A stretch of DNA of 64,000 nucleotides from Yersinia thracica (lineage in GTDB: Bacteria; Pseudomonadota; Gammaproteobacteria; Enterobacterales; Enterobacteriaceae), in assembly GCF_902170565.1 (NCBI RefSeq), contig NZ_CABHXX010000008.1:1-64000 (forward strand), in the 5' to 3' direction. Made by a program: the position numbers and the translations under genes. Below the pieces are notes generated by a model. It was not told the origin of the DNA and ran no database searches. It worked only from the letters and a program-made list of their open reading frames with translations. This document shows, in pieces, positions 37,625-57,073 of the stretch (within the stretch, counting starts at the first letter, position 1; each line of letters begins with the position of its first letter).

Positions 37625-39673
37625 CTAACTGAATAGCGGTAGGCTACTGTCGGTAAAGGGAATTTTTACCTGTATAACCTGCTGTTGACGCGTTAATGTG
37701 ATGGATAATATCTCGCCATTATTGTCCACTTGAACATCCAACAGGGGGTCGTGGTTATTCATATCAAACACGCAAGTGACCAGTGACTCAGGTTGATGAT
37801 GACGCAAAATCAGATAACTGATATCACGCACCGACGGATTTGCCGGTGCCAACCCCTGAAATAGGGTGGCATCCGCTGCGAGCCAAAGTGATAACGGGCG
37901 TGCCGCTGTTTGATAGCGGCACTGAATCACGCCATTGAGTGGTTGGGCGGTCACCTGATGTAAATATTGCATCGGCCCATTGCTGCTAAAAGTGGCACTT
38001 TCCCCCACTGATTCCATTGCTGTGCCGTCAATATGCAGTGTCCAGTTCCACTCTTGCTGATGTGGATTAACGATACTGCTGAGGTCAATAATGGCGTCAT
38101 CCAACCACAAAATACGGCGACGGAATTTGACATCGCGATAAGCTTCGCAATCCCATTGAACACGAGTATGACTGTCTAACTCGGGCGCTTTTTTACTCCA
38201 ATCTACCTCTGTATCCAAGCAACTAAATTTTGCCGATTGATGCCAGTTATGAATCACCGGCACTGCGGGCGGCTGATTTGCCTGGTTAATACTCAGCGTA
38301 TTGTGAGTGGCGCTATTTTTGTAGTATCCATAATGTAGCTGCGCGCCATAACCTGTGGTGCCTAAATCCGGCAGGATTTCGTGCCCTTGCTCAAACAAAA
38401 TTAAATTTAGCCGATCATAATGATCGTGTTCACCTCCGTAAGGGCTGTGTTTTACCAACAAAGCCCGGCCAGACTGCGGTTGGCGCAAGATGGTCAGCCC
38501 GCAATCCGGTGCATGCAGTGTATCGGTTGGAATGACATCAATCATTTGTGGTGGTAATTCTTCAACGCCATACAGCAGAGCATCCAAATTTAGGCGCGGC
38601 TCATGGCGATAAATATGCTGTAGGGCGGCAGCATATTCATCATTACCATAGGTTTTAAAAGCAAATTCATACAAATGGGCATGATTGAGCTGCTCTTGGC
38701 CCGCAGTACAATCATTGATGCGCGGGAATGTGCCATCGGGCATCAGCAGTTTTAAAGGGAAACTGAGCATATCGCGGTAATAAGGCAACGCCAGCAGACT
38801 GTAGCGGCTACCGGCGGCCAGTTTTTCAAATGACCAGAAGCCTTGCAGCGCATAAAAGTGATAATGCACCGAGCCTTCAAACCATAATCCCTCATTGAAC
38901 AACCCATGTTCTAGCTGATAACGCAGGCCATATTCGGCATTCACCGCAAACTCAACATAGTGTTCATCTTCGAGGATCAAGCCGATCACCGCGATAGCGC
39001 TGCTGATCTTCACTTCATGGTTATGTAACTGGCGGGTGCGGTGTTGCATTAAGAAATCCGCGCCCTCTCGCAATAAGCGCCCGGCGATGCAGTCGCGTTG
39101 TTCCTGACTGAGCGCGTCGGCAATAAAGTCATAACCCAATGCAAAATCGAGCAGGCAATTGGCCTCACACAATGTCTGTGCATTGGCTTTGCCCGGCCCG
39201 TTGTACGGAATCCCCCCGTGAACTTCATAGTTAGGATAGTAGCGGGCGTAATTGATCAGAATATCCCGCACCTTTTCGAAGTAACGACTTTCTCCAGTGA
39301 GCTGCCACAGCAAACCGAGCTGATTACAGGCTTTGGCATTGAGGCCATTAAGCGCCCGCCACCAGGCACCGTCATAGGGTTCTCCGCTAAACAGATGCGA
39401 GTCTATCGGGCAACGGTGTTGAGTCGGTGAATGGCGATCCCACTCCAACATCACACCGTGATCAGGGCAATAATAGTAATGGTTCCAGGTGGCGATACCG
39501 GTGGTCGGGACTTGTGTTTCTGAGTCCAAAATCACCTGATTGCCTGCAATCAGCGAGGCAATAATCTCCGGCTGCTGCTGCACTGGATTTCCCTGATGTA
39601 GCACTGTATTTTTCTGATATAGCACAGCGCGCTGGCGGATTTTTGCCATCTGCCGATCCGTAAACTGCTTCAT
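37625..39673 (-). CDS. Heparinase II/III-family polysaccharide (oligo-uronate) lyase
   Basis: A 682-residue protein without signal peptide, so probably cytosolic. The N-terminal part is an alpha-toroid (repeats such as WWRALNGLNAKACNQLGLLWQLTGE); the C-terminal half is the beta-rich heparinase II/III domain. Candidate catalytic segments are QLHNHEVKISSA (Asn/His), SVHYHFYAL (Tyr) and GEHDHYDRLNL (His), the pattern seen in PL15/PL17/PL21-type exolyases that release unsaturated monouronates. It follows the secreted lyase gene by 22 bases in one operon. The true substrate (alginate, glucuronan or a glycosaminoglycan oligomer) cannot be read from the sequence. Confidence 0.8.
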   Translation of the reverse strand: MKQFTDRQMAKIRQRAVLYQKNTVLHQGNPVQQQPEIIASLIAGNQVILDSETQVPTTGIATWNHYYYCPDHGVMLEWDRHSPTQHRCPIDSHLFSGEPYDGAWWRALNGLNAKACNQLGLLWQLTGESRYFEKVRDILINYARYYPNYEVHGGIPYNGPGKANAQTLCEANCLLDFALGYDFIADALSQEQRDCIAGRLLREGADFLMQHRTRQLHNHEVKISSAIAVIGLILEDEHYVEFAVNAEYGLRYQLEHGLFNEGLWFEGSVHYHFYALQGFWSFEKLAAGSRYSLLALPYYRDMLSFPLKLLMPDGTFPRINDCTAGQEQLNHAHLYEFAFKTYGNDEYAAALQHIYRHEPRLNLDALLYGVEELPPQMIDVIPTDTLHAPDCGLTILRQPQSGRALLVKHSPYGGEHDHYDRLNLILFEQGHEILPDLGTTGYGAQLHYGYYKNSATHNTLSINQANQPPAVPVIHNWHQSAKFSCLDTEVDWSKKAPELDSHTRVQWDCEAYRDVKFRRRILWLDDAIIDLSSIVNPHQQEWNWTLHIDGTAMESVGESATFSSNGPMQYLHQVTAQPLNGVIQCRYQTAARPLSLWLAADATLFQGLAPANPSVRDISYLILRHHQPESLVTCVFDMNNHDPLLDVQVDNNGEILSITLTRQQQVIQVKIPFTDSSLPLFS

Positions 39674-39695
39674 ATCTGGTGTGTCCTCGCGGTGC

Positions 39696-40931
39696 TTATT
39701 TTTTTGTGTTCAGTGGCTGTGTTATTGGGTAAAGCAGGATTTCAACGGCATCCGGATATTGGGCAATCAGGTATTGCGCTTTTTGTTGGAAATCAGTGTC
39801 AGCCGGGTAGGCGCGGGCGGCCGTTATCATATTGACCAAGGCTTTTTTATCTTGCACCCCGTCCAAGTCTTTGTACGGCCAAACCTGGTCGGTATTGATA
39901 AAGCCCGCGACATATTGATAGCCTTTTTTCAAACTGTGTTCATCAAGGCTAAAGTTCCAGATATCTTTATCGGCCACTTCACCCAGGCGGCCCAGCTTGT
40001 TGTAGGCTTCCAGATGGAAATTACTGTAATGCCATGGGCGGGTGCGTTCCAGTTCTGCATTTTGGCGGCCTTGCATATCAAAATGCGAGGGAATTCGGCG
40101 CAGTTGCGTGATTTCTAAGCGCTTTTGTGCGGCGGCTTTTTGGTCGCTGAACAACGCAAAAGAGGCGGCCTGCATATCAAAATAGGTGCCGTGGTTATTA
40201 TGCCAATTATCCTCTTCGAAACCATTTTGGCTGGTGGTCATCCATTGATAAAAATCTTTGTACCAAAGTTTGATAGCTTGATAGTCGGCGTCATTGAGGA
40301 CATTCGCGGGCCTTATCAATTCCACCGCATCAATAACGTCTACCAGTGCCCGGCTATCTATCAAGCCAATACCTCGGCCTTCATTGATGCCCGGAATAGC
40401 TTGAGCATATTGTAAATTCGGGTTCATTCGGGTATTGGGGTTGACGAACCAATTGACCAATAAATCGCGCGCTTTTTCGGCATACTCTGGCTTGCCGGTA
40501 AAGCTATAAGCTAATGCCAGATAATAGACATCGGCACTGAAGCTGTTCATGCGTTTCTTATCAGTCGCGTCACTATTGGCATCAGGATTCGTTTCGCCGT
40601 CTTTACGCAAATAAGGCATGCCGTCTTTCTTACTTGGGTCCGGCCACCAATAAGGTGGGAAGCTGTAATAGTCATGTTTATCACCACTGGCGGCCAACAG
40701 ACTTTTATCCATGACAGAATAGAGCGGCGCTTTCAGGGCAATGTCTGCTTTAGCTATCAGATTTTTATAGGATTTTTCATATAGCGGATTGTTTTGTTTA
40801 ATTTGGTCAATGCTATAGTTTATATCATCCATTTTTAATAATAATGGGTGGCTTTCTGCCGCGTAAATAAAGGGCGAAGAGCTAAGAAGAATAGCCAGTA
40901 ATAGGTTTTTTTTACCCAACATTTTCATCAT
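39696..40931 (-). CDS. Secreted alginate-lyase-superfamily protein (PF05426-like)
   Basis: A 411-residue protein with a clear signal peptide (basic start, hydrophobic core, cleavage near YAAE at residue 25), so periplasmic or secreted. The fold is the alpha/alpha toroid of alginate-lyase-like enzymes: KHDYYSFPPYWWPDPSK, MPYLRKDGETNPD, and the Asn-His pair in WHNNHGTYFDMQ that corresponds to the catalytic NNH of AlgL-type lyases. AAGGA precedes the start. It is first in a minus-strand operon with the heparinase-like gene, and is related to the cytosolic protein at 45695. Substrate unproven. Confidence 0.8.
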   Translation of the reverse strand: MMKMLGKKNLLLAILLSSSPFIYAAESHPLLLKMDDINYSIDQIKQNNPLYEKSYKNLIAKADIALKAPLYSVMDKSLLAASGDKHDYYSFPPYWWPDPSKKDGMPYLRKDGETNPDANSDATDKKRMNSFSADVYYLALAYSFTGKPEYAEKARDLLVNWFVNPNTRMNPNLQYAQAIPGINEGRGIGLIDSRALVDVIDAVELIRPANVLNDADYQAIKLWYKDFYQWMTTSQNGFEEDNWHNNHGTYFDMQAASFALFSDQKAAAQKRLEITQLRRIPSHFDMQGRQNAELERTRPWHYSNFHLEAYNKLGRLGEVADKDIWNFSLDEHSLKKGYQYVAGFINTDQVWPYKDLDGVQDKKALVNMITAARAYPADTDFQQKAQYLIAQYPDAVEILLYPITQPLNTKK

Positions 40932-41494
40932 ACTTTCCTTATTTTTTATGATTTACATGATTAAAAATAAAGTGTTTTGGTTGATTTAATTAATTTATCC
41001 ATTCTTAATGAATAGTTTTTCTTACCTTTAAAAAACAAGGTTATTAAATTTATTGGTACGCTATCAATAAAGGGAACGCTGTTCCATTTAAGATGGATTT
41101 TAATTCTAGGGTAAAGTTTTAGGACTTTTGTGATCTAGATCTATCTTATAAATTATCTGTTAATAAATGATTTAAATTGTGATTGGCATCAAATTAAATC
41201 TCTATTTTAGACATTTTTTAGGCAATTTAAATAATTACACGATTTTTTTATTTTTTAAAATGAAGATATTATAGCTTTGTTTTTAAAAGGTAATTTAACT
41301 TAATTGTTATTTTGTCTCATTTTGCAAGTGTGATCTTAAGCAGAAATATTAAAATGGAATTAAGTTTTGTTTTTTATGGTGTAGTTTTTTGTTTTCCTCT
41401 GAGTTCTAATGTTGTCGAGTGTTTCGTGATTTTATTCTGTTATTTAAACTTCTGGGTAAATTCATAAAAATTAGATTTCAACGAGGACGCTAAG
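40932..41494. promoter_or_regulatory. Divergent promoter region of the polysaccharide locus
   Basis: 563 very AT-rich bases between the two divergent operons with no gene. It holds three TGTGA motifs: 41129-41144, 41179-41194 and 41329-41344. No regulator gene and no clear KdgR-type box was seen. Confidence 0.6.
41179..41194. promoter_or_regulatory. CRP-like site in divergent promoter
   Basis: TGTGATTGGCATCAAA matches TGTGA-N6-TCACA at 9 of 10 positions. A second motif at 41129-41144, TGTGATCTAGATCTAT, has a perfect left half and the ideal spacer but a weak right half. Confidence 0.55.
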
Positions 41495-42808
41495 ATGAAG
41501 ACAAAAATGATAATGTCAAAAGTAAAAATAAAATCTTTGCTGTTGTTAACTTATTTAGCTATGGGGGTTCCTTCTCTCCACGCAGCAGAGACATTACAGG
41601 TGTGGATACGCGCCAGTAATGATTCAAAAAATATTTATAAAGCAGAAGCTGAGACTTTTGAGAAGAAAACCGGCATCAAAATTGAATATTTCAATGCCAC
41701 CACCGATTTTGAACAGCGCCTGGCAAGGGCGGCGGCCGGTAACGCTTTGCCGGACTTGATTTTCAATGATGCGGCGGCTATCGGGCAGTTTGTTCAGCTC
41801 GGTATTGTTGAGCCGATCGAGCCGAAAAATATCATTGGTGGGGCAGATGTCTTAGATACTGCTTGGCAGAGCGCCCAATATATTGACGGTAAATATTATG
41901 GCGTGCCAACTTCAGCACAAACCTTTGCTTTGTTTATCCGTAAAGATTGGCGCGAAAAACTGGGCTTAGAGTTACCGAAAAGCTGGGAAGATATCAGCAC
42001 CTTGGCCAAAGCATTTACCTTTAATGACCCCGATGGCAATGGCAAAAATGATACTTACGGCTTTATTTTGCCCGCCTCCACCACTCGTGGTTACGCCAGC
42101 TGGTTTATCAGCTCCTATCTGTGGCAAGCCGGTGGTGACTTCATTCGCCCGGCCGGTGAGGGCAAATTTAAAGGCTCATTGGAAGAACCCGCAGCGGTTG
42201 AAACACTGAGCTTCATTCGCGGCATGGTGTGCAACAAAACGGTACAGCCGGGCGCAATTAACGCCACCACCGCCGACGCCATTCCTTCCTTCCGTTCCGG
42301 TCAAAGCGGCATGTTCGTCACCGGCCCATACCATATTGCTCTATTTGATAAAGATCCCGGTAAAGATGCTTTTGAAGTGATCCCGCCGCCAAAAGGGCCC
42401 AAAGGGCAGGCAACACTGGCCGAAGGCACCACGGTATTTATGATGAAAAGTAGCGAGAAAAAAGCAGCTGCTCAGAAATTCATAGAATTTATGATTTCAC
42501 CTGAAGGGCAACAAATCGGCATGGGCATGGGCAGCAACAATATGCCGGTCGTGCGCTTATCCATTAATAAACTGGTTGATACCAAAGCCGTTTATAACGA
42601 CCCGCGCTGGGCAATGTTTGCAGATTTGTACGCCGAACATGGCCGCTATATTCCGCAAGTCCCTAACTGGACGCCAATTCGTCAGGTTACTGCTGAAGGT
42701 TTCAACCGCATCTTAGCCAACTGTGAGGGTGATATCCCTGCTGAATTAAAAGCAGTGAATCAGAAAGTGAATGATGAGTTGGCTAAACAGAATGTCTTAG
42801 GGCAGTGA
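41495..42808 (+). CDS. ABC transporter sugar/oligosaccharide-binding protein
   Basis: A 437-residue family 1 extracellular solute-binding protein with a signal peptide ending PSLHA before AETLQVW. The N-terminal lobe has KIEYFNATTDFEQRLARAAAGNALPDLIF, typical of binding proteins for maltose, glycerol-phosphate and uronate oligomers. GAGG lies before the ATG. It heads the plus-strand operon: binding protein, permease, permease, ATPase, lyase. Given the flanking lyases, an unsaturated or saturated oligo-uronate is the likely ligand; this is inference. Confidence 0.85.
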   Translation: MKTKMIMSKVKIKSLLLLTYLAMGVPSLHAAETLQVWIRASNDSKNIYKAEAETFEKKTGIKIEYFNATTDFEQRLARAAAGNALPDLIFNDAAAIGQFVQLGIVEPIEPKNIIGGADVLDTAWQSAQYIDGKYYGVPTSAQTFALFIRKDWREKLGLELPKSWEDISTLAKAFTFNDPDGNGKNDTYGFILPASTTRGYASWFISSYLWQAGGDFIRPAGEGKFKGSLEEPAAVETLSFIRGMVCNKTVQPGAINATTADAIPSFRSGQSGMFVTGPYHIALFDKDPGKDAFEVIPPPKGPKGQATLAEGTTVFMMKSSEKKAAAQKFIEFMISPEGQQIGMGMGSNNMPVVRLSINKLVDTKAVYNDPRWAMFADLYAEHGRYIPQVPNWTPIRQVTAEGFNRILANCEGDIPAELKAVNQKVNDELAKQNVLGQ

Positions 42809-42815
42809 GTAAATC

Positions 42816-43700
42816 ATGATAACGCTAACCCCCCGACTAAAACGTAATCTGGTTCCGTGGCTGTTCTTGGCCCCGGCACTGGTCATCTTCACCTGGTTTA
42901 AATTCATCCCGATGCTGCAAGGGCTGGTGATGAGTTTTTACAAGGTTAACTTTAACCAGCCAAATGAGTGGGTCGGGTTTGACAACTTTTCCCGCGCGAT
43001 GGGTGATGAAGCACTGCATTCTGCGGTTTTCAACACCCTGTTATATGTGGTGGTCACCATGGTGGTGGCCGCTTTTATCGCCTTCTTCTTAGCGATGTTA
43101 TTGGAAGGGCCGGCGCGGCATTTGCGTTTTATCCGTACCGCAATCTTCTTGCCTGCGGTGACCAGTGCGGCGATCGTCGCCGAAATGTGGCGAATTCTGT
43201 TTAACCCGACGAGCAACGGTGTCGTCAACCACATTTTGTCGTGGTTTAGCATTGAAGCGCAGGGTTTTCTGGCCGACACCGACCAGGCGCTGTGGACCGT
43301 GATGTTGCTGCATATCTGGAAAGCCGTGCCTTACAACATGGTTATCTTTATTGCGGGTCTGGTGGGGATTAGCCGTGATTTGTACGACGCCTCGAATGTG
43401 GACGGCGCTAACTGGTGGAACCGTCTGCGTTACGTTACTTTGCCGGGCATGATCCCCGCGCTTTCTGTGGTGCTGATGCTGTCATTCATCCGTGGTTTCC
43501 GGGTGTTTGCTGAAGTCTATGCCACCACCGGCGGCGGCCCGTCTAATGCGACAGAAATGATCATGACTCATATCTACAAACTGGGCTTTGAGCAGTTTGA
43601 CTATGGTTATGCGTCAGCGGTGTCCTTCCTGTTATTCGCTTTCACTGTGGTGCTGACTATTTGTCATCTCACATTGAAAAAGCGTATAGCCCGTTACTAA
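42816..43700 (+). CDS. ABC sugar transporter permease (MalF/UgpA type)
   Basis: A 294-residue inner-membrane permease with six hydrophobic segments. The EAA loop that contacts the ATPase is DLYDASNVDGANWWNRLRYV followed by TLPGMIP. It starts 7 bases after the binding-protein stop and is paired with the second permease 19 bases downstream. Confidence 0.9.
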   Translation: MITLTPRLKRNLVPWLFLAPALVIFTWFKFIPMLQGLVMSFYKVNFNQPNEWVGFDNFSRAMGDEALHSAVFNTLLYVVVTMVVAAFIAFFLAMLLEGPARHLRFIRTAIFLPAVTSAAIVAEMWRILFNPTSNGVVNHILSWFSIEAQGFLADTDQALWTVMLLHIWKAVPYNMVIFIAGLVGISRDLYDASNVDGANWWNRLRYVTLPGMIPALSVVLMLSFIRGFRVFAEVYATTGGGPSNATEMIMTHIYKLGFEQFDYGYASAVSFLLFAFTVVLTICHLTLKKRIARY

Positions 43701-43719
43701 CCCGAGCCGGAGACTGGGA

Positions 43720-44559
43720 ATGAAAAGTAAAAGTTGGAACAGTATCGGCCGCTGGGTAATTTATGGTCTGTTGCTGGTGGTGTTTGTCGGCCCCTATTGG
43801 GGCATCATTGCCACCGCATTCAGCGGCGCACCGGTAAAACCGGGGGAGCTGTTGGCCTGGCCCAATCAATTCTCGTGGGATAACTTTATCTTCGCCTGGA
43901 TGGATATCGGCGTCTGGCAATACCTGCTGAACTCCATCGTCGTGGTGTTCTTCGGCACCATTTTACAGGTGTCGGTCAGTGCTCTGGCGGCCTATGCGCT
44001 GGCCCGTAAAAAGTTTGTCGGGGTCTCGCTGACCAGCTTGATTATTCTGTCGACCATGATGCTGCCGGAAGAAGTTATCGCCATCCCGCTGTATATGATA
44101 ATCAACTGGCGACTGCCGGTGATTGATGCCTCGCTGTACAACAGCTATCTGGGCATGATCCTGCCGGTGGTGGGTTGGGCTTTCTCTATCTTCGTGCTGA
44201 CCGAGTTTATGGCGGCTATCCCGAAAGAGCTGGAGGAAGCGGCGCGCATTGATGGTGCCAGCGAATGGCAAATCTTCTTCCACGTCATCCTGCCGCTGGT
44301 TAAACCGGCATTGGGCACCGTGGTGACCTTCGGCTTCATCATGATTTGGGACCAATACCTGTTGCCACTGATTGTGGTGAATCAGGACAGTTTGAACACT
44401 ATTCCGGTGATCCTCGGCACATTGCGTACTGACGAGACCATCACACCAAATATCTTTATTGCCATCACTCTGTTGGCGATGTTGCCAAGCATCATCGTGT
44501 ATCTGGGTCTGCAAAAACATTTCAATCGCGGGATCATGTCTGGCGCGGTTAAAGGCTAG
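43720..44559 (+). CDS. ABC sugar transporter permease (MalG/UgpE type)
   Basis: A 279-residue inner-membrane permease with six hydrophobic segments. The EAA loop is ELEEAARIDGASEWQIFFHV, then ILPLVKPA, the classical carbohydrate uptake transporter-1 signature. GGAG-like spacing upstream is fair (CCGGAGACTGGGA). Together with the previous gene it forms the heterodimeric channel. Confidence 0.92.
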   Translation: MKSKSWNSIGRWVIYGLLLVVFVGPYWGIIATAFSGAPVKPGELLAWPNQFSWDNFIFAWMDIGVWQYLLNSIVVVFFGTILQVSVSALAAYALARKKFVGVSLTSLIILSTMMLPEEVIAIPLYMIINWRLPVIDASLYNSYLGMILPVVGWAFSIFVLTEFMAAIPKELEEAARIDGASEWQIFFHVILPLVKPALGTVVTFGFIMIWDQYLLPLIVVNQDSLNTIPVILGTLRTDETITPNIFIAITLLAMLPSIIVYLGLQKHFNRGIMSGAVKG

Positions 44560-44570
44560 GGAGAAACAAA

Positions 44571-45686
44571 ATGGGATCGGTTGTACTTAAAAATGTCTGT
44601 AAATCTTACGGTGACACCCATGTGATCCGCGATGTATCGCTGGAAATCCCTGACGGTGAATTCTGCGTGTTAGTTGGCCCGAGCGGCTGCGGAAAATCCA
44701 CCTTACTGCGCATGATAGCCGGGCTGGAGGAGATCTCCGGCGGCACGGTGGGCATCAATGATAAAGACGTCACTGACGTTGAACCCAAGATGCGCGACAT
44801 TGCCATGGTGTTCCAAAGTTATGCGCTTTATCCGCAGATGACGGTGCGCGAGAACATGGGTTTTGCGCTGAAAATGGCCAAAATGTCCAAAGCCGAGATC
44901 AATAAAAAAGTGGAGTCCACGGCGGAATTACTGGGCTTACAAGCTTTGTTGGAGCGGCTGCCGAAAGATTTGTCCGGTGGTCAACGCCAGCGGGTGGCCA
45001 TGGGTCGCGCCATTGTGCGTAACCCGCAAGTGTTCTTGTTCGATGAGCCATTGTCGAACTTGGATGCCAAATTGCGTACTCAGGTGCGTGGTGAGATCCG
45101 CGAATTGCATCAACGGCTGAAGACCACTTCCGTCTATGTGACGCATGATCAGATTGAAGCGATGACCATGGGGCAGATGATCGTGGTGCTGCGCGACGGG
45201 CGTATTGAGCAAGTCGGCTCGCCATTGGATCTTTACGATCGTCCCGCCAACTTATTTGTGGCTGGCTTTATCGGATCACCGGAGATCAATCAGTTGAAAG
45301 GCACCGTGGTGCTCAATGCTGGAGAGACGACAGAACAAGGCGACGAATTCCTGCTGCGGCTGGAAGACGGCTCTTTGCTGACATTGCCGGCCGGTTTGCA
45401 AGTGACTGATGGGCAAAATGTGGTGTATGCCATTCGTCCAGAGCAGGTCAACGTGGTGGATGAAACACACCACGCCAGCGCACTGAAAGCGACCATTACC
45501 GCGATTGAAAATACCGGCTCGGATATGCAGCTATTTTGCAGCACCGGCGGGGGCCGTTTTACCTCGGTCTTCAAACAGCGTTTGGCGGTGAATGCAGGGG
45601 AGACCGTGTATTTGCAGCCTAAGCTGGCCGGTATCCACATTTTTGATGCCGCCACTGGCGTGCGGGTTGCCAGTCAGGCCGCATAA
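44571..45686 (+). CDS. ABC sugar transporter ATPase (MalK/UgpC type)
   Basis: A 371-residue ATPase. Walker A GPSGCGKST, Q-loop VFQSYALYP, signature LSGGQRQRVAMGRA, Walker B VFLFDEPLSNLDA and switch His VTHDQIEA are intact. The C-terminal 130 residues form the MalK-type TOBE regulatory domain. It powers the permease pair encoded just upstream and starts 11 bases after the second permease. Confidence 0.93.
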   Translation: MGSVVLKNVCKSYGDTHVIRDVSLEIPDGEFCVLVGPSGCGKSTLLRMIAGLEEISGGTVGINDKDVTDVEPKMRDIAMVFQSYALYPQMTVRENMGFALKMAKMSKAEINKKVESTAELLGLQALLERLPKDLSGGQRQRVAMGRAIVRNPQVFLFDEPLSNLDAKLRTQVRGEIRELHQRLKTTSVYVTHDQIEAMTMGQMIVVLRDGRIEQVGSPLDLYDRPANLFVAGFIGSPEINQLKGTVVLNAGETTEQGDEFLLRLEDGSLLTLPAGLQVTDGQNVVYAIRPEQVNVVDETHHASALKATITAIENTGSDMQLFCSTGGGRFTSVFKQRLAVNAGETVYLQPKLAGIHIFDAATGVRVASQAA

Positions 45687-45694
45687 AGGAAGCC

Positions 45695-46867
45695 ATGCCC
45701 ATGACGCCAATGAAAACGTCTGTGACGCCAATGAAATTGTACACGCTCGATGTGGATTGCCTTGCCAAGGCGAAAGCGGTATTGCAGCAGCCATTTTCAC
45801 CTCTACAACCGGCCTTGCGCCGGTTATTAAGTGAAGCCGATGCATTGCGCGATCAACCGCCGGAAAGTGTGACACACAAAACGCTACTGCCCGTCAGTGG
45901 CGACATTCACGATTATTACAGTTTTGGCACTTACTGGTGGCCGAATCCGCGTAAGCCCAATGGATTGCCCTATGTGCGCCGCGATGGGCATACCAATCCA
46001 CAAAGTCAGAATGACGATACCGATACTCAGCGGATTGAGCGGATGTGTGACCGCTGCCTAACCCTCGGACTGGCTTACTATTTTACCGGCAATAGCCGCT
46101 ATGCTCAGGTGGCGGCAGAGCAGATCCGTTGTTGGTTTTTAGATGCCAAAACTCGGATGAATCCGCACTTGAATTATGGTCAGGCCATCCCCGGCATTGT
46201 TTCTGGCCGTGGGACGGGGTTAATCGATACCCGGCTGATGTGGATGGTGATTGACACTATTGGATTGATATTGCCCGCCAAGCTACTGGATACCGAGGAT
46301 ACCGCGGTGTTGCAGCAGTGGTTCCGTGACTTTAACCACTGGATGTTCCACAGCGAAGTGGGTCACTCGGAATATGTCTGGCACAACAACCACGGCACCT
46401 GGTATGACGTGCAGCGCGCGGCAAATGCGATGTTCTATGGCGATCGTGGGCTGGTTTCCACCATTATTCGCCAGGGGATTACCCAACGGCTGGCGGCACA
46501 AATAGCGCAAGACGGTAAGCAATGGATGGAACTGGAGCGCACCGTGCCTTTCCATTATTCCTTATTCAATATGGAGGCGCATTTGCTGCTGTGTCGTTAC
46601 GGCGAACATGTTGAAATTGATCGCTGGGATTGGGTACAAGATGGCCGCAATGTGCAGCAAGGTATTGATTATTTGCTGCCATTTATTGCTGAACCTGAGC
46701 TGTGGCCTTACCGTGATTTGCGCGGCATTGATTATGACAGTGCTTTGCGGCTGTTATTACAGGCGGCTCGGGGCTATCCAACAGATGCCAAACGCTATCA
46801 AGCGGTGCTCGCCACTTTGCCAGCAGACACCTTAACCTCACGCGACCGTCTGTTGTGGCAAAGTTGA
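45695..46867 (+). CDS. Cytosolic alginate-lyase-superfamily protein
   Basis: A 390-residue relative of the secreted protein at 39696 but without a signal peptide. Shared motifs are HDYYSFGTYWWPNPRK, LPYVRRDGHTNPQ, NPHLNYGQAIPG and WHNNHGTWYDVQ with the likely catalytic Asn-His. It closes the transporter operon, 8 bases after the ATPase. The N-terminus repeats (M/V)TPMK, encoded by a duplicated 14-base segment, so the true start may be the second or third Met; AAGGAAG favours the first. It probably acts on imported oligo-uronates. Confidence 0.78.
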   Translation: MPMTPMKTSVTPMKLYTLDVDCLAKAKAVLQQPFSPLQPALRRLLSEADALRDQPPESVTHKTLLPVSGDIHDYYSFGTYWWPNPRKPNGLPYVRRDGHTNPQSQNDDTDTQRIERMCDRCLTLGLAYYFTGNSRYAQVAAEQIRCWFLDAKTRMNPHLNYGQAIPGIVSGRGTGLIDTRLMWMVIDTIGLILPAKLLDTEDTAVLQQWFRDFNHWMFHSEVGHSEYVWHNNHGTWYDVQRAANAMFYGDRGLVSTIIRQGITQRLAAQIAQDGKQWMELERTVPFHYSLFNMEAHLLLCRYGEHVEIDRWDWVQDGRNVQQGIDYLLPFIAEPELWPYRDLRGIDYDSALRLLLQAARGYPTDAKRYQAVLATLPADTLTSRDRLLWQS

Positions 46868-47920: not shown

Positions 47921-48910
47921 ATGAATTCAGAACCTAAAAAAGGCTCGGCCAAAGCAACATTCGATTCTAAAGAAAGTGCTGATTTAGTTAAAAATAAAAT
48001 GGTGACATGTACAACACGCTTTAAATTCTATTTACCAAAAGTTAATGGTGACTCAATAGAGTTCGGATTTGGTATTGAAAGTGATTGTGTAAATGCTGCC
48101 GATGATTTTAAAACATTATTTAATTCATGGCTTAACAAAAAATCATTAGCAACATCATCGAGTGAGTTTTGTAAAAAAGTTGATATTCTTACATGTGCAG
48201 TAGTCAATAATCCATTAGAATACTCGATGAGCCAATTGCAAGGAGACTTATACACGATATATATAGTCAGTGAGTCTGCCAATACCGAAACATTTTGGTT
48301 ATTCCTTGATAAACCCGATAAATTAGCTGTCGGTTCTACTATATATGCAAACTCAGCTGCCAATCTAACAATAGCTTCCGGCTCCTCCCCAGAAGCGACC
48401 TTTGGTATTCCTATTCAGTATAAGCTCGGGGCGAAATCGTCAAATAATGCTGTTGGACTAAACGTGAAAGTTGCAACTTCGCAATTAAAGGATGTAAATA
48501 TCCAGGATGTTTGGAAAGCAACCTTTTATGATGGGCCTGAACATCAAGCTCCTGACCTCGATAAAGCGGATGGTGTGGCAAATAAAGATGAAATAAATTA
48601 TACGGATAACTCATTTGATCCTGATAGAGTTATTCAAAATTCATGGTATCCCAGTCAAACGTTTGGCATACAGACTGAAAATGGATTTGTAGGTATGACT
48701 TGGGAAGCTCGGCCAGCTAAAACAGTCGCAATTGCTCCAAAATTAACATTCTTTGTAACGACGGGTGAATATTCAAGTAATCAACTGGCCGATTATTCTA
48801 CGGTATCAAATAGTGCTCAAATCGTTAACCTATCTGATTTCTCAGGATTTGCAGTAACGGTAACTTATACCAAAGACGGAAAGTGGAACATTAAAAAGGG
48901 TAGGCCATAA
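47921..48910 (+). CDS. Unrecognised 329-residue protein, possible RhiA-like C-terminal region
   Basis: Not recognised with confidence. The protein is soluble with no signal peptide or membrane segment and is rich in Ser, Asn, Thr and Lys. Residues 1-105 form a region of their own (FKFYLPKVNGDSIEFGFGIE). From about residue 110 the pattern YTIYIVSESANTETFWLFLD, later FGIQTENGFVGMTWEARP and FFVTTGEYSSNQLADY, weakly recalls RhiA-type proteins, abundant cytosolic proteins under quorum control in Rhizobium. AAGG precedes the ATG. Flanked by long AT-rich non-coding DNA on both sides, between yhbP and yraR, so probably acquired. Confidence 0.75.
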   Translation: MNSEPKKGSAKATFDSKESADLVKNKMVTCTTRFKFYLPKVNGDSIEFGFGIESDCVNAADDFKTLFNSWLNKKSLATSSSEFCKKVDILTCAVVNNPLEYSMSQLQGDLYTIYIVSESANTETFWLFLDKPDKLAVGSTIYANSAANLTIASGSSPEATFGIPIQYKLGAKSSNNAVGLNVKVATSQLKDVNIQDVWKATFYDGPEHQAPDLDKADGVANKDEINYTDNSFDPDRVIQNSWYPSQTFGIQTENGFVGMTWEARPAKTVAIAPKLTFFVTTGEYSSNQLADYSTVSNSAQIVNLSDFSGFAVTVTYTKDGKWNIKKGRP

Positions 48911-50440: not shown

Positions 50441-51205
50441 TTATAAGCTAATTATCTGATTATCTTGGGCAATAGTGACACCAGCGGGCAGTGTGTTGTC
50501 GAGCGCCCAGACATCCAACTGGTGACTGATGTGGGTCAGTAAAGTGGCTGTGGGCTGCAATAGCTCACTGATGGCGAGCGCCATGGTCACATCATTATGA
50601 TTACGTGGCGGTGGATTATGTTGTGAAAGATCCTGTGGCGGATGGCTGCAATCTTGCACCAGCAAATCAATGTTTTTACTGGCTAAAAACAGCGCGCTAT
50701 CAGCCGGTAACCCAATGGTGTCGGTGAGATAGGCGATAGTCCGGTTAGGGCTTTGCAGCAGATAGCCGAAAGTGATTTTTGAGTGATTTAAGGGGATGGG
50801 TGTGACCCGCAAATTGCCAAATTGAATCGGGTGAAATGCCCTTAATGGCGGCTGAAAAGCCAGTATTCCCGGGTGCTTATACAGATCGTCGCAGCCATCA
50901 GGATCTGGCGGCCCGTACACCGGGATCGTATTTCCGCATCCCCAACGTAACGGAAATAACCCCTGAACGTGATCCATGTGGTAATGTGTAAGCAAAAAAC
51001 GCTGAATTTCCCCCGCCGCAAATTGTTGATCCAGTGTCGGCAACCCCGCATCAATCAAGGTCGTTTCCCCCTGATAACGCAACATTGCACTGCAAGATTT
51101 ACGGCGCAGCGCGGGTTGCACTCTGGCTTTGACGCAAACCACACACTCACAGCCAAACACCGGCACCAGTTGGGCGCATCCGGTTCCTAACAATGTCAGT
51201 TCCAT
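50441..51205 (-). CDS. phnP: Phosphoribosyl 1,2-cyclic phosphate phosphodiesterase PhnP
   Basis: A 254-residue metallo-beta-lactamase-fold enzyme that opens ribosyl 1,2-cyclic phosphate, a product of C-P bond cleavage. The metal motif is LLTHYHMDHVQGL; the early zinc-binding Cys cluster CECVVCVKARVQ and the later PLNHSKITFGYLL are as in E. coli PhnP. It is the last gene of the phn operon and overlaps phnN by 10 bases. phnO, which lies between phnN and phnP in E. coli, is missing. Confidence 0.95.
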   Translation of the reverse strand: MELTLLGTGCAQLVPVFGCECVVCVKARVQPALRRKSCSAMLRYQGETTLIDAGLPTLDQQFAAGEIQRFLLTHYHMDHVQGLFPLRWGCGNTIPVYGPPDPDGCDDLYKHPGILAFQPPLRAFHPIQFGNLRVTPIPLNHSKITFGYLLQSPNRTIAYLTDTIGLPADSALFLASKNIDLLVQDCSHPPQDLSQHNPPPRNHNDVTMALAISELLQPTATLLTHISHQLDVWALDNTLPAGVTIAQDNQIISL

Positions 51206-51780
51206 GATTGACTCTCTTTGGTGTGGTCTGATGACGGGCCAATTGCCAGTAATTGCTGTAATTGCCCCAGTGTGTGGTGCAGTTCGCCGTCATTGCAAAG
51301 TTGCAGGCAGTTAACCGGCAGTTGTTGCTGATAATGTTGCGCCCGCTGTAAACGCGCCGCGATTTGCTCACTGTTTTCACGGCCACGTTGCTGTAAACGC
51401 TGGGCTAAAATGGCGGGCGAAACAGTCAGACACAGCGGCAGTAATTGGTGGTGATAGCGCCGTTCGGCCTCGGGTAAATAAGCGCGGGAGCCATTCACCA
51501 CCACATCCAGCCCGCGTTGCAGCCAGATATCAATCTCAATTCCCACCCCATAATGATGCTGATGTGCTTGCCAAAACAGCGCAAATAACCCCTGTTCGGC
51601 GCGCAATAAAAACTCCTGTTCACTCAGCGCGATATGATTTTCAGCGCCCGCGTGGGCCTCGCGGGTAATATAGCGGTGCGCGACCAGCATATTGGCGGGC
51701 ATGGCCGCCCGTAGCGCAGACAGCAGGCAATCCTTACCGGCACCGGAAGCGCCCATCAGATAGATTAAGCGCGCCATCAA
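51196..51780 (-). CDS. phnN: Ribose 1,5-bisphosphate phosphokinase PhnN
   Basis: A 194-residue guanylate kinase-like enzyme that converts ribose 1,5-bisphosphate to PRPP. Walker A is YLMGASGAGKDCLL. Other family features are VAHRYITREAHAGAENHIAL and VVNGSRAYLPEA. It overlaps phnM by 4 bases and phnP by 10. Confidence 0.95.
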   Translation of the reverse strand: MMARLIYLMGASGAGKDCLLSALRAAMPANMLVAHRYITREAHAGAENHIALSEQEFLLRAEQGLFALFWQAHQHHYGVGIEIDIWLQRGLDVVVNGSRAYLPEAERRYHHQLLPLCLTVSPAILAQRLQQRGRENSEQIAARLQRAQHYQQQLPVNCLQLCNDGELHHTLGQLQQLLAIGPSSDHTKESQSWN

Positions 51781-52925
51781 AATACCTGTATTCCTTGCCG
51801 CCAGACATTTTGCACGTAAACATGTTGACCCTGCGGGCCATCATGGGTGCGAGCTAAGATCAAATCCGCGCGTTTTCCCTCGGCAATCACACCGCGATCC
51901 TCCAGCCCCAAGGCCCGGGCGGGATTGCGTGTCACCAGATTGACCGCTTGCGGCAAAGTAAAACTGTTGGTCGAGTCCTGCGCGATACGAAATGCCGCAT
52001 CCAGCAAGCTGGCGGGGTAATAGTCGGAAGACAAAATATCCAATACGCCCAGTGTCGCCAGTTGGTGTGCCGCCACATTACCGGAATGGGAGCCACCGCG
52101 CACAATATTGGGCGCGCCCATCAAAACCTGTAACCCATGCTGGTGCGAAGCCCTGGCCGCCACTTCGGTGGTGGGAAATTCGGCAATCACACTGCCCAAT
52201 TGTTGTGATTCCGCCACATGTTCGGCGGTGGCATCGTCATGGCTGGCTAGCGCAATGCCTCGTTGGCGGCAGTGTGCGGCGATAGCCTGCCGGTTTTGCC
52301 CTGACCAGCGGGCTGAAAGGCTGATTTGCTCTTCTTCAAATTCCGCCATCTGCCGGTCGTTAAGGTGATATTTCCCCTGATAATATTCACGATACTTGGC
52401 CCGTGAAGCAAACTGGCGCTGGCCCGGCGAGTGATCCATCAAAGAAACCAATGAAAGCTCTGGCTGCATCATCAGTTCTTCAAACAGTGGCAAGGTGCTG
52501 TCATGGGGTAATTCACAGCGTAAATGAATCCGGTGTTCAGCTCGATTTAATCCCGCCCGCTGACTCTCGACCACCGCATTAATCATTTTTTGCAGATTAT
52601 CCAGCCGATGACCGCCATCGCGCACATCGCCGACAGCCACGGCATCTAACACCGTGGTGATGCCGCTGGCCACCATCAGCGCATCGTGGCTGCTCATTGC
52701 TGAATGTGCGGGCCAATCCACATTGGGGCGCGGGGTGAAAAACTTGTCGAGATTATCAGTATGCAGCTCGATCAACCCCGGCAATAACCAGCTATTTTGT
52801 CCATCAAGAGCCGCTGAAAGTTGCGTCGGGCGATCACTGAAACTGCGGATCACGCCCTGGTGGATTTCTAGCGATCCGCTGACCACTTGATCCTCAAGAA
52901 TAAGATTAATGTTATTGAGGATCAT
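51777..52925 (-). CDS. phnM: RPnTP hydrolase PhnM
   Basis: A 382-residue amidohydrolase-superfamily enzyme that removes pyrophosphate from alkylphosphonate ribosyl triphosphate. The metal motif is [17 protein letters not shown]; later conserved parts are [31 protein letters not shown] and [14 protein letters not shown]. It overlaps phnL by 4 bases (ATGA), giving translational coupling. Confidence 0.96.
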
Positions 52926-53704
52926 GATGGGATCTCCGTGCTGACATTAGACGGCGGTGGGGTCATGGTAAGTAGGCGGTCACTGACATGATTGCGCACA
53001 TTTTCATCGTGGAAAATCCCGACAATCGCCGCTCCGCGCTGTTTGGCTTCATCAATCAAGCTAACCACCGCCGCGCTATTGGTGCTGTCCAGTGAGGCGG
53101 TCGGCTCATCCAGCAGTAAAATAGGGTAATCGACGATAAAACCACGGGCGATATTGACCCGCTGTTGTTCGCCGCCGGAAAAGGTGGAGGGGGCCAAATC
53201 CCACAATCTCGGCGGCACATTGAGGCGAGTTAGCAAGTCTTGCGCCCGCTGTTGGCAGATTTGCCGATCAAACCCCAGCTCCAGCAAGGGCTGCATCACC
53301 ACATTTAATGCACTGATCCGCGGGATCACCCGCAAAAATTGGCTGACCCAACCCACGGTATGGCGGCGCACCGCCATAATCTGCCGGGCTTCGGCGCTCA
53401 CCATATCCAGCCATTCGCCCTGATGTTTCACCCAGATATGGCCGCTGTCGGGTAAATAATTGGCATATAAAGAGCGCAGTAAGGTCGATTTTCCGCTGCC
53501 GGAATGGCCGTGTAGCACCACACATTCTCCACTGCTGACTTCCAGCGAAGTTTGATGCAGCACCGGCAGACGAATGCCGTGCTGGTGGTGTAATACAAAG
53601 GTTTTACTGAGATTTTCAACTTTGAGTTGTAAGGATTTCATAGGCAGCTGTAGGGGTTTGATAGACAGTTTTAAGGGTTTGATGGACAGTTGCAGGGAGT
53701 TCAT
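52922..53704 (-). CDS. phnL: C-P lyase complex ATP-binding subunit PhnL
   Basis: A 260-residue ABC-type ATPase of the C-P lyase system. Walker [11 protein letters not shown], signature [14 protein letters not shown], Walker [13 protein letters not shown] and switch FHDE are present. The first 30 residues are not part of the family: they are four degenerate seven-residue repeats ([28 protein letters not shown]) made by a 21-base tandem repeat. Which Met is used is open; GAGAG upstream favours 53704, while the Met at 53641 would trim most repeats. Confidence 0.93.
53635..53704 (-). repeat. 21-bp in-frame tandem repeat at the phnL 5' end
   Basis: Three to four imperfect 21-base units of the type AAACCCTTAAAACTGTCTAT encode the heptad-like LxLSIKP repeats ahead of the conserved PhnL N-terminus. 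Confidence 0.8.
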
Positions 53705-53717
53705 AGTCAGCTCTCAA

Positions 53718-54524
53718 TCAGTTTTGCAGCACGGATGAAACCAGTAATTGGGTATAAGGATGGTGAGGATCATCCAGCACCCGGTCAGTGAGGCCGCTTT
53801 CGATAACCCGGCCCTCTTTCATCACCAGCAGGCGGTTAGCCAATAGGCGGGCGACCCCCAAGTCATGGGTGACAATCACCACCGCCAGTTGCATTTCCAC
53901 CACCAGATTGCGCAGTAAATCCAGTAACCGTGCTTGCACTGACACATCCAGACCGCCAGTCGGTTCGTCCATAAACACCAGCTTTGGATGAGTCACCAGA
54001 TTGCGAGCAATTTGCAATCGCTGTTGCATCCCGCCGGAGAAGGTGGTGGGCAGGTCATCCAGACGGGATAAGGGGATCTCAACATCTTCCAGCCAGCGGC
54101 CTGCTTGTTGGCGAATTTCGCCATAATGGCGCTGTCCGATAGCCATCAGCCGTTCGCCGATATTGCCGCCCGCCGAGACTTGTGGCCGCAATCCATCCAG
54201 CGGATGCTGATGAACCACGCCCCATTCAGTGCGCAGTAAGCGGCGGCGTTGGCTTTCTGCCATCTGATATAAATCAAGCGCTTGCTGTGCATCTGGGCGG
54301 TAAATAATTTGTCCCTGTTGCGGCGTCAGGCGGGCTGAAATGGATTTCAGCAAAGTGGTTTTCCCCGAGCCAGATTCGCCAACAATCCCTAATACTTCGC
54401 CGGGATACAGTTGGAAAGAGACCTCGCTGAACCCCTTACCCGGCGCATACAAATGGGTGAGATTCTCCACCGACAGCAGCGGATGGGCGGCGGTGGAGGT
54501 TAAAATAGCGGCTTGTGAAATCAT
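53718..54524 (-). CDS. phnK: C-P lyase complex ATP-binding subunit PhnK
   Basis: A 268-residue ABC ATPase that docks onto the PhnGHIJ core. Walker A GESGSGKTT, signature FSGGMQQRLQIARN, Walker B LVFMDEPTGGLD and switch VTHDLGVARL are intact. The ATG at 54524 overlaps the phnJ stop by 4 bases; the ORF runs further upstream inside phnJ without homology. The tail DDPHHPYTQLLVSSVLQ resembles peptide-transport ATPases, as known for PhnK. Confidence 0.96.
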   Translation of the reverse strand: MISQAAILTSTAAHPLLSVENLTHLYAPGKGFSEVSFQLYPGEVLGIVGESGSGKTTLLKSISARLTPQQGQIIYRPDAQQALDLYQMAESQRRRLLRTEWGVVHQHPLDGLRPQVSAGGNIGERLMAIGQRHYGEIRQQAGRWLEDVEIPLSRLDDLPTTFSGGMQQRLQIARNLVTHPKLVFMDEPTGGLDVSVQARLLDLLRNLVVEMQLAVVIVTHDLGVARLLANRLLVMKEGRVIESGLTDRVLDDPHHPYTQLLVSSVLQN

Positions 54525-55387
54525 GGGATATTCACCTCTGGTGCAGCGGCCTGAGCCAATTGCTGCTGGCAATAATCAGTATCCGAGCAAACAAACATCC
54601 GGCTGCCTTTATCATCCATCACCACTTCATCAAGATAACTGTGGCGCGAGCCGCACAGGGCGCAAGGCTCATCCCATTGCTGCACGGTAAACGGGTGGTC
54701 GTCGAAATCCAGACTTTCTACCTTGGTAAAGGGCGGCAGGGCATAAAGGCGCTTTTCCCGACCGGCGCCAAACAGTTGCAGTGCGGGCATCATGTGCATC
54801 TTGGGGTTATCAAATTTCGGGATTGGCGACGGGTCCATCACGTAGCGGTCATTCACTTTCACCGGATAGGCATAGGTGGTGGCGATATGGCCGTAGCGGG
54901 CGATATCTTCATACAGCTTTACCTGCATCACGCCATACTCCTCCAAAGCATGCATTTTGCGGGTTTCAGTTTCGCGCGGTTCAATAAAGCGTAGCGGCTC
55001 AGGGATAGGTACTTGATAGATAATAATTTGATCTTCAGTCAGCGCTGTTTCTGGAATGCGGTGCCGGGTCTGGATCAAGGTGGCGTCAGTGGTTTTTTCC
55101 GTGGTGGCGACCCCGCTGACCCGCTGGAAGAAGCGGCGGATCGACACCGCGTTGGTGGTGTCATCGGCCCCTTGGTCGATCACTTTCAGCACGTCATAGC
55201 GGCCAATCAAACAGGCGGTTAGCTGAATGCCACCAGTGCCCCAGCCATAGGGCATCGGCATCTCGCGCCCGCCAAATGGCACCTGATAGCCGGGAATGGC
55301 CACGGCTTTCAGTAGTGCGCGGCGCAGGGTGCGTTTGGTTTGCTCATCCAGATAGCCCAGATTATAACCGGCGAGGATTTCAGTCAT
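54521..55387 (-). CDS. phnJ: Alpha-D-ribose 1-methylphosphonate 5-phosphate C-P lyase PhnJ
   Basis: A 288-residue radical SAM enzyme that breaks the carbon-phosphorus bond. The iron-sulfur ligands are in DEPCALCGSRHSYLDE (two Cys three apart) and MFVCSDTDYC; the latter also holds the essential thiyl-radical Cys. GGREMPMPYGWGTGGIQLTA and DQGADDTTNAVSIRRFF are conserved blocks. The ATG at 55387 overlaps the phnI stop by 8 bases and gives a length near E. coli's 281; the ORF extends 64 codons upstream into phnI without homology. Confidence 0.97.
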   Translation of the reverse strand: MTEILAGYNLGYLDEQTKRTLRRALLKAVAIPGYQVPFGGREMPMPYGWGTGGIQLTACLIGRYDVLKVIDQGADDTTNAVSIRRFFQRVSGVATTEKTTDATLIQTRHRIPETALTEDQIIIYQVPIPEPLRFIEPRETETRKMHALEEYGVMQVKLYEDIARYGHIATTYAYPVKVNDRYVMDPSPIPKFDNPKMHMMPALQLFGAGREKRLYALPPFTKVESLDFDDHPFTVQQWDEPCALCGSRHSYLDEVVMDDKGSRMFVCSDTDYCQQQLAQAAAPEVNIP

Positions 55388-56498: not shown

Positions 56499-57073
56499 AC
56501 CTCCACATGGGTAGTGCGTGGGATTGCCATCAGGTTCTCGCCACAGGTGAGTAGAAAATCGAGGCCCGCGGGGAAGGCGGCGGGGCGGTTAAGCAAGTCA
56601 TTCAGCACGGCAGAGGGTAATTGCGGCGCGACCCTGCGGTAGTGTTCAATTCCCGGTCCGCGTAGGCGCAGAGGTACGCCGTGATGCAGGTTTGCTACCT
56701 GAAGAATGACCGTGGTGGAGTGCTCCGGCGAAAGTTCGTTACCCGCTGGGCAGTTAGCCAGCAAATCTTCTGTTATCTCATGGTCAAATAAGGCAAAACT
56801 GGCAGCATTGATGCTAGCCGTCAGGGGTGCTCCGCAATGAAAGCGTACATTCTGCTGCACGGCATCACTGTTAAGTGCTGGTGCTAAATAGAGCGGCGTT
56901 TCCTGATCCGCCAGAGTCAGCAAAATACTGGTGGTGGCGGGATTTAATGGTGACCAGCCGCGACTATGGGGTAGCGAAATCAAGACCCCAGGCTCACTTA
57001 ACGCTTTGAGAATACGGCGAAAAGCGTGCTGGGCATCATCAACCGGCTGGTCGAAATGGGTTAATAAACTCAT
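56492..57073 (-). CDS. phnH: C-P lyase core subunit PhnH
   Basis: A 193-residue core subunit with a PLP-transferase-like fold lacking cofactor. Recognisable are DDAQHAFRRILKALSEPGV, PLNPATTSILLTLADQETPLYL and FPAGLDFLLTCGENLMAIPRTT. It overlaps phnG by one base (TAATG) and phnI by seven. Confidence 0.96.
   Translation of the reverse strand: MSLLTHFDQPVDDAQHAFRRILKALSEPGVLISLPHSRGWSPLNPATTSILLTLADQETPLYLAPALNSDAVQQNVRFHCGAPLTASINAASFALFDHEITEDLLANCPAGNELSPEHSTTVILQVANLHHGVPLRLRGPGIEHYRRVAPQLPSAVLNDLLNRPAAFPAGLDFLLTCGENLMAIPRTTHVEVC

What the first reader, a model, noticed from the sequence alone, without database searches (positions are those of the whole stretch)
37625..46867. Candidate undescribed uronate-polysaccharide utilisation locus in Yersinia
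A secreted and a cytosolic alginate-lyase-superfamily enzyme, a cytosolic heparinase II/III-like enzyme and a complete CUT1-type ABC importer are arranged divergently. The layout implies limited periplasmic cleavage, import of sizeable oligomers and final cleavage inside. It resembles the alginate importer logic of Sphingomonas and the paired lyases of gut Bacteroides, but the enzyme combination with no outer-membrane porin, regulator or sugar-acid catabolic genes is unusual for an enteric bacterium. The substrate could be alginate, glucuronan or a host glycosaminoglycan.
Basis: partly seen in the sequence, partly recalled or inferred. Interest (0 to 1): 0.72.

Follow-up and report, generated by a model that had tools for sequence, protein, structure and literature searches.

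The report
Enterobacterial oligo-glucuronate lyase and uptake locus
A seven-gene locus, found in most of the Yersinia genomes searched and in many other enteric bacteria, encodes enzymes and an importer that probably break down and take up short chains of a uronic acid, most likely glucuronic acid rather than the seaweed polymer alginate.

Summary
It is not unusual for an enteric: the PL17-type gene is in 19 of 25 genus genomes, and 37 of 80 named relative loci carry the same binding protein. Published Yersinia PL17_1 enzymes, probably orthologues, were inactive on alginates and every other uronate used. Context suggests a substrate: near 14 of 14 relatives outside the family (50-54% identical) lies glucuronate isomerase, often with KduD, an RpiB-like isomerase and KdgR; none of these four lies near 20 alginate-type PL17 genes. 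The window's genome has KduI, KduD, UxaC and two KdgM porins, and no GH88 match. Best reading: uptake and lysis of beta-1,4-glucuronan oligosaccharides, built like the pectin PelP/TogMNAB/PelW route. Substrate and transport are inferred; UxaC does not lie beside the enteric ABC loci, and the KdgR site is weak in Yersinia.

The parts
37625..39673 (-). Cytosolic PL17-type lyase (subfamily-1-like), 682 aa; N218, H219, Y271, H418, Y451 align with Alg17C N201, H202, Y258, H415, Y450
   Evidence: counterparts counted by hand along the alignment, invariant in the 16-row alignment; the PL17_1 label comes from PMC5966431, not from a call
39696..40931 (-). Secreted PL38-type lyase, 411 aa; H247/Y302 align with BoPL38 catalytic H243/Y298
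40932..41494 (.). Divergent regulatory region, 563 bp; 562-566 bp in 18 genus loci
41069..41089 (.). Candidate KdgR-like site, 16 of 20 consensus letters; weak evidence
   Evidence: best in the 64-kb window, 0 of 40 shuffles of the window reach 16; but 4 of 200 shuffles of the AT-rich region itself reach it and the 15-bp core is not significant (p 0.67)
41129..41144 (+). TGTGA half-site conserved in 18 genus loci, possible CRP box
   Evidence: CRP assignment is recalled, not tested
41178..41193 (+). TGTGA-N6-TCAAA, TGTGA conserved in 18 genus loci, possible CRP box
   Evidence: CRP assignment is recalled, not tested
41329..41344 (+). TGTGA half-site conserved in 18 genus loci, possible CRP box
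   Evidence: CRP assignment is recalled, not tested
41495..42808 (+). Periplasmic solute-binding protein (SBP_bac_1/SBP_bac_8), 437 aa
42816..43700 (+). ABC permease, UgpA/MalF-like, 294 aa
   Evidence: below the NCBIfam cut-offs
43720..44559 (+). ABC permease, UgpE/MalG-like, 279 aa
   Evidence: below the NCBIfam cut-offs
44571..45686 (+). ABC ATPase of the UgpC/MalK type with TOBE domain, 371 aa (NF008653 469.8 bits, cut-off 432)
45695..46867 (+). Cytosolic PL38-type lyase, 390 aa; H233/Y288 align with BoPL38 catalytic H243/Y298

Best explanation
The locus most likely lets the cell use oligosaccharides of beta-1,4-linked D-glucuronic acid (glucuronan; sources in print include Mucor cell walls, green algae and bacteria, PMC10180729 passages). 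Oligomers would cross the outer membrane through a KdgM-type or general porin encoded elsewhere (inferred). The secreted PL38 shortens them in the periplasm (inferred from family, catalytic residues and signal peptide). The ABC importer takes them in (inferred). In the cytosol the second PL38 and the PL17-type enzyme finish the job; the PL17-type enzyme probably acts on unsaturated di- or short oligosaccharides, as Ogl does for pectin, releasing the 4,5-unsaturated monomer and free glucuronate (inferred). The unsaturated monomer would go through KduI and KduD, and glucuronate through UxaC, into the 2-keto-3-deoxygluconate pathway (shown: genes for KduI, KduD and UxaC are in the genome; inferred: their use here). 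The plan parallels PelP / TogMNAB / PelW / Ogl for pectin in the same genus.
For: UxaC lies in 14 of 14 neighbourhoods of PL17_1-like relatives outside the family (50-54% identical) against 0 of 20 neighbourhoods of alginate-type PL17 genes; KduD 8 v 0, RpiB-like isomerase 8 v 0, KdgR 7 v 0; KdgF-like cupin (6 v 12) and symporter (11 v 9) do not separate them (families named). Nine genomes hold both kinds and show the same UxaC split (one of these controls is only 4.3 kb). Activities known in PL17_1 are glucuronan and hyaluronan lyase (PMC5966431), and 2 of the 5 PL38 enzymes listed in PMC13027841 are glucuronan lyases. No GH88 match in the genome, which fits a homopolymer. KduI (451 bits, cut-off 250) and KduD (539, cut-off 430) beside a PelW-like gene; UxaC; two KdgM porins. 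8 of 11 MFS-type relatives carry a KdgM porin in the neighbourhood. Catalytic residues are conserved in all three lyases. The first 8 rows for the 682-aa model are PL17 entries.
Against: Two Yersinia PL17_1 enzymes, probably orthologues, degraded none of the oligo- or polysaccharides used, in a study that had poly-glucuronic acid (PMC5966431, sections read). Orthology is inferred from one PL17-like gene per genus genome; the sequences were not compared. UxaC also handles galacturonate (recalled), so it does not by itself fix glucuronate. The UxaC link is in relatives at about half identity: it is in 22 of 80 named loci and in 0 of the 35 with only the ABC layout, and 3 of 16 symporter-only loci lack it. 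PL38 also includes alginate and hyaluronan/chondroitin lyases, and PL38 is near only 4 of the 14 UxaC-linked copies. The binding protein's solved relatives are mixed sugar binders and give no uronate clue. KdgR control is unsure in Yersinia.
Confidence: 0.58

Rival explanations
1. Alginate system: PL38 and PL17 lyases cut alginate oligomers imported by the ABC transporter, as in Sphingomonas or gut Bacteroides.
For: Two PL38 enzymes degrade alginate (Aly38A, BoPL38); PL17_2 enzymes are alginate lyases; the closest solved structures are alginate lyases.
Against: Yersinia PL17_1 enzymes were inactive on algal alginate, polyM, polyG and polyMG (PMC5966431); the window enzyme is far below the oligoalginate-lyase cut-off (92 against 1400 bits); the alginate-type neighbourhoods lack UxaC, KduD and KdgR, which mark many relatives of this gene.
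Confidence: 0.1
2. Host glycosaminoglycan system (hyaluronan or chondroitin).
For: One PL17_1 enzyme and RiPL38 cut hyaluronan; a Yersinia glycosaminoglycan lyase, YsHyl8A, is cited in print (reference seen).
Against: No GH88 match in this genome, so unsaturated disaccharides could not be opened by the usual route (recalled); no sulfatase or GH88 among the locus genes or the neighbour clusters scanned (not all neighbours were scanned).
Confidence: 0.1
3. Glucuronate-containing heteropolymer or acetylated/substituted uronan (for example a bacterial or fungal exopolysaccharide) rather than a plain glucuronan.
For: Would explain the published inactivity on simple substrates; the authors of PMC5966431 proposed a complex substrate for PL17 enzymes in some gut loci.
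Against: No glycoside hydrolase or esterase family matched the locus proteins or the neighbour clusters scanned, so side residues could not be removed locally.
Confidence: 0.15
4. Galacturonate-type oligomer: an accessory pectin system.
For: UxaC, KduI and KduD also serve galacturonate (recalled); KdgM and KdgR belong to pectin use.
Against: No PL17 or PL38 enzyme named in the passages seen cuts alpha-galacturonan; the genome already has a PelW-like gene with an ABC importer.
Confidence: 0.07

Closest known systems
Pectin route PelP / TogMNAB / PelW / Ogl of Yersinia enterocolitica (KdgR regulon; PMC5559549, passages seen)
   Same: Periplasmic lyase, CUT1-type ABC importer, cytosolic lyases, KdgM porins, KduI/KduD downstream
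   Different: Lyases are PL38 and PL17, not PL2 and PL22 (PL22 for Ogl is recalled); the binding protein aligns with the TogB-like protein only over 45 aa at 29%, while the ATPases are 45% identical; KdgR site weak here
PL17_1 glucuronan lyase OPIT5_27565 and hyaluronan lyase Acid4041 (PMC5966431)
   Same: Same family and, by that paper, the same subfamily as the Yersinia enzymes
   Different: Those two are endo-acting on polymers; the Yersinia enzymes were inactive on the substrates used; sequences not compared here
PL38 enzymes BoPL38, Aly38A (alginate), CUL-I, TpPL38A (glucuronan), RiPL38 (hyaluronan/chondroitin)
   Same: Homology to BoPL38 (E 4.8e-48 and 2.7e-61) and both catalytic residues conserved
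   Different: Two PL38 genes in one locus, one secreted and one cytosolic; substrate untested
Alginate ABC importer system of Sphingomonas sp. A1 (recalled)
   Same: ABC import of lyase oligomers followed by cytosolic lyases
   Different: No superchannel gene among the seven; AlgQ proteins are not named in the 60 best of 517 rows shown for the binding protein

Membership tests
PL17 (whole family) | Sequence and fold homology to solved PL17 lyases | tested here: met
PL17 (whole family) | Catalytic Asn-His and two Tyr | tested here: met
   N218, H219, Y271, Y451 align with Alg17C N201, H202, Y258, Y450 (alignment counted by hand; window numbers) and are invariant in 16 rows
PL17_1 | Placement in the subfamily tree | not tested
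   Label taken from PMC5966431 for Yersinia enzymes; reference PL17_1 sequences were not in hand
Oligoalginate lyase (NF042990) | Curated NCBIfam cut-off of 1400 bits | tested here: not met
   92 bits
PL38 | Homology to the solved PL38 enzyme BoPL38 | tested here: met
   8bdq E 4.8e-48 and 2.7e-61
PL38 | Catalytic His243 and Tyr298 of BoPL38 | tested here: met
   H247/Y302 and H233/Y288
PL38 | Lyase activity | not testable with these tools
   needs an assay
CUT1-type ABC sugar importer | Binding protein, two permeases, one MalK/UgpC-type ATPase | tested here: met
Bacteroidota-style PUL | SusC/SusD pair | tested here: not met
   none among the seven genes
KdgR regulon | Operator in the promoter region | tested here: inconclusive
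   16 of 20 letters in the window but 4 of 200 shuffles of the region reach it; core test p 0.67 in the window, p 0.000-0.020 in 4 of 14 loci (Serratia, Cedecea, Raoultella, Klebsiella BIGb0407), pooled 0 of 300 shuffles
Glucuronan utilisation | Activity on beta-1,4-glucuronan or its oligomers | not testable with these tools
   needs an assay; published Yersinia enzymes showed none on the substrates used

The most novel reading that the evidence does not exclude
A whole enterobacterial oligoglucuronate pathway that has gone unnoticed: the PL17_1 enzyme is a cytosolic lyase for unsaturated glucuronate di- and oligosaccharides (a glucuronate counterpart of Ogl), often paired with PL38 lyases and plugged into four different inner-membrane transporters (ABC, MFS with a KdgM porin, TRAP, sodium symporter), giving gut and soil enterics access to fungal, algal or bacterial glucuronan. 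It would explain why the purified Yersinia enzymes looked dead on polymers.
Probability: 0.4. Interest if true: 0.62.

Novelty: new variant of a known kind. Interest (0 to 1): 0.48.

Why it matters
Published work left the substrate of the Yersinia PL17_1 enzymes open. The neighbourhood contrast found here turns that into one direct test (oligoglucuronates, including unsaturated disaccharides). If right, many enteric bacteria, including 19 of the 25 genus genomes searched, hold a carbon route whose genes match the Pfam family Alginate_lyase and could be misread as seaweed use.

Tried and rejected
Alginate as substrate: rejected as main reading and published data. KdgR box by exact search: none within 3 mismatches of the 15-mer in the locus; one hit elsewhere in the window against 3.85 expected. 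KdgR box by 21-mer: best in the window and the top site at the same place in 15 of 18 genus loci, yet weak against shuffles of the region itself and not significant by core; significant in 4 of 14 loci picked over the genera, not in those tested from the Klebsiella oxytoca group (L128), Buttiauxella (L101), Kluyvera (L122) or Serratia marcescens L112. A motif of my own was unique in the genome but says nothing about function. L072, first taken as kduI, reads as iolB by its neighbours (my reading); the kduI is L191:7642-8478. The binding protein as a TogB duplicate: rejected. AlgQ-type binding protein: not seen in the 60 of 517 rows shown, which is inconclusive. A family not listed is not excluded.

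Limits: the 20 alginate-type control neighbourhoods were chosen by me from the weaker matches (many more were listed there); one holds only 4.3 kb, and their alginate-type label rests on 27-29% identity to my query, not on a family call. The 14 test neighbourhoods are 14 of the 16 nearly full-length matches outside the genus; the other two (Buttiauxella, L052 and L053) have the ABC layout and no UxaC. One of the 14 (L058) is only 5.3 kb. One search kept the best 80 of 158 relatives. Neighbour genes come from a simple ORF caller that keeps the longest of overlapping frames, so a few genes were missed (for example in L100). The tree used the quick method and holds some long branches. The 682-aa model has low-confidence stretches, including 413-418 beside the active site.
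Full report
WHAT IS THERE. Minus strand: 37625-39673 (682 aa) and 39696-40931 (411 aa). Plus strand: 41495-42808 (437 aa), 42816-43700 (294 aa), 43720-44559 (279 aa), 44571-45686 (371 aa) and 45695-46867 (390 aa). Gaps inside each operon are 7-22 bp and the divergent region is 563 bp. Pfam and NCBIfam give two Alginate_lyase (PF05426) proteins, one Hepar_II_III_C protein with a weak PF05426 N-terminal match, and a full CUT1-type ABC importer. The 411-aa lyase and the binding protein begin with a hydrophobic stretch after basic residues, as Sec signal peptides do; the other two lyases do not.

WHAT WAS KNOWN. PMC5966431 (sections 6 and 12 read; passages) expressed two Yersinia PL17_1 proteins and saw no degradation of alginates or of the other uronate oligo- and polysaccharides used; in the same subfamily one enzyme cut hyaluronan and one poly-beta-1,4-glucuronate. 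The authors left the substrate open. I infer that those proteins are orthologues of the window enzyme because each of the 19 genus genomes with a match has exactly one; I did not compare the sequences. For PL38, PMC13027841 (passages) lists two alginate lyases and two glucuronan lyases and adds a hyaluronan/chondroitin lyase. Ten paper searches (seen as listings except where a reading call is cited) turned up no description of this locus; the library holds open-licence papers only.

HOW WIDESPREAD. In the genus, 19 of 25 genomes have the PL17-type gene. All 19 have the secreted PL38 gene beside it, and 18 have all seven genes on one stretch; the 19th is cut by a contig end. 22 of 25 have some PF05426 gene. 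In a sample of 394 genomes of the order, 74 have some match; 16 outside the genus are nearly full-length at 50-63% identity. A scan of named genomes found 158 relatives and kept 80. 37 of the 80 carry the same binding protein, in Yersinia, Edaphovirga, Enterobacillus, Serratia, Buttiauxella, Cedecea, Enterobacter, Kluyvera, Klebsiella, Raoultella and an unnamed Enterobacteriaceae bacterium; 34 of the 35 with only the ABC layout show two PL38 genes. By the labels, 11 others have an MFS transporter (closest NCBIfam model D-galactonate transporter, below its cut-off), 8 of them with a KdgM porin; 6 have a TRAP transporter, 17 a sodium symporter and 9 none seen. In a tree of the 80 PL17-type proteins the 37 ABC rows and two loci cut by contig ends form one branch (SH-aLRT 93), and transporter labels need 14 changes against 39 on average in shuffles (near copies inflate this).

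WHAT THE RELATIVES SAY ABOUT THE SUBSTRATE. Glucuronate isomerase UxaC lies in all 14 neighbourhoods, KduD in 8, an RpiB-like isomerase in 8, KdgR in 7, a KdgF-like cupin in 6, a sodium symporter in 11 and PL38 in 4. As control I took 20 neighbourhoods of the more distant, alginate-type PL17 genes from the same search: UxaC 0, KduD 0, RpiB-like 0, KdgR 0, KdgF-like 12, symporter 9, PL38 1. Nine genomes are in both sets and show the same UxaC split, though one of these controls is only 4.3 kb long. Among the 80 named loci UxaC is in 22: 13 of 16 with only a symporter, 0 of 35 with only the ABC layout. UxaC acts on glucuronate and galacturonate, and KduI/KduD on the ketouronate from unsaturated galacturonate or glucuronate; alginate's monomer differs at C2 and C3 and is reduced by another enzyme (recalled chemistry; NCBIfam names KduI 5-dehydro-4-deoxy-D-glucuronate isomerase). 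With the known range of PL17 and PL38, beta-linked glucuronate is the best fit.

DOES THE WINDOW'S GENOME SUPPLY THE REST. Yes for downstream steps and a porin: UxaC; KduI and KduD over NCBIfam cut-offs, next to a PelW-like lyase (919.7 bits, cut-off 1000), four genes that read as togMNAB (my reading of the ORFs) and a kdgM gene; and a second kdgM on another contig. No GH88 match, which argues against glycosaminoglycan use. A third PL38-type gene, with a signal-peptide-like start, lies alone beside a general porin gene.

REGULATION. The divergent region has a KdgR-like site, 16 of 20 letters at 41069-41089, the best in the window; 0 of 40 shuffles of the window reach 16. Presumed KdgR promoters in this genome (kduI, pelW-like, kdgM) score 16, 15 and 18 by the same measure, the other kdgM 14, and two regions not expected to be controlled score 12 and 13. 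But the AT-rich region itself reaches 16 in 4 of 200 shuffles, the site is the top one in 15 of 18 genus loci only, and the stricter 15-bp core is not significant in the window (p 0.67); it is in 4 of 14 loci that I picked over the genera (Serratia, Cedecea, Raoultella, one Klebsiella), pooled 0 of 300 shuffles. I treat KdgR control as likely in some relatives and open in Yersinia. Three TGTGA sites are conserved in the 18 genus loci and may bind CRP.

MECHANISM AND VERDICT. Shown: gene content, families, catalytic residues, conservation, neighbourhood contrast, presence of KduI, KduD, UxaC and KdgM genes. Inferred: location of the enzymes, import, substrate, order of cleavage. I commit to oligoglucuronate use at 0.58. 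The published inactivity is the main evidence against; it would be explained if the cytosolic PL17-type enzyme needs short unsaturated oligomers, whose cleavage leaves little absorbance at 235 nm. This is a new variant of a known kind of system: the design of the pectin oligomer route with other lyases, common in enterics and not particular to this genome.

Noticed in passing
L001:1294-2628 (own genome C67:14671-15513, minus strand); also L193:6464-7798: A third PL38-type lyase with a signal-peptide-like start stands alone between a general porin gene (Porin_1) and an EamA-like transporter (my reading); 14 of 25 genus genomes have such a high-scoring copy, including three that lack the seven-gene locus, and one more genome (G024) has it split over two frames.
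   Followed up: partly
L068:7881-10004 (Yersinia similis, also L096), N-terminus of the PL17-type protein: The N-terminal segment of the PL17-type enzyme varies in length and holds a short repeated peptide in Y. similis; in the window it is the low-confidence stretch 18-33 of the model.
   Followed up: no
L067:14592-16616 and homologues in L062, L063, L066 (also L155, L159, L161, L162): A 674-aa protein family without a Pfam or NCBIfam match at E 0.001 sits beside symporter genes, and in L066 and L067 beside PL38; possibly another lyase.
   Followed up: no
window 47921-48910: A 329-aa ORF near the locus without any Pfam match at E 0.001.
   Followed up: no
L134 / L056:2193-5763: A Vibrio locus has a different ABC importer (ATPase 44%, permeases 33-34% identical) near the PL17-type gene in addition to the symporter.
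   Followed up: no
window 50441-58335: Genes that look like a phosphonate (C-P lyase) operon: PhnI, an amidohydrolase, a metallo-beta-lactamase-fold protein and a GntR/UTRA regulator.
   Followed up: no
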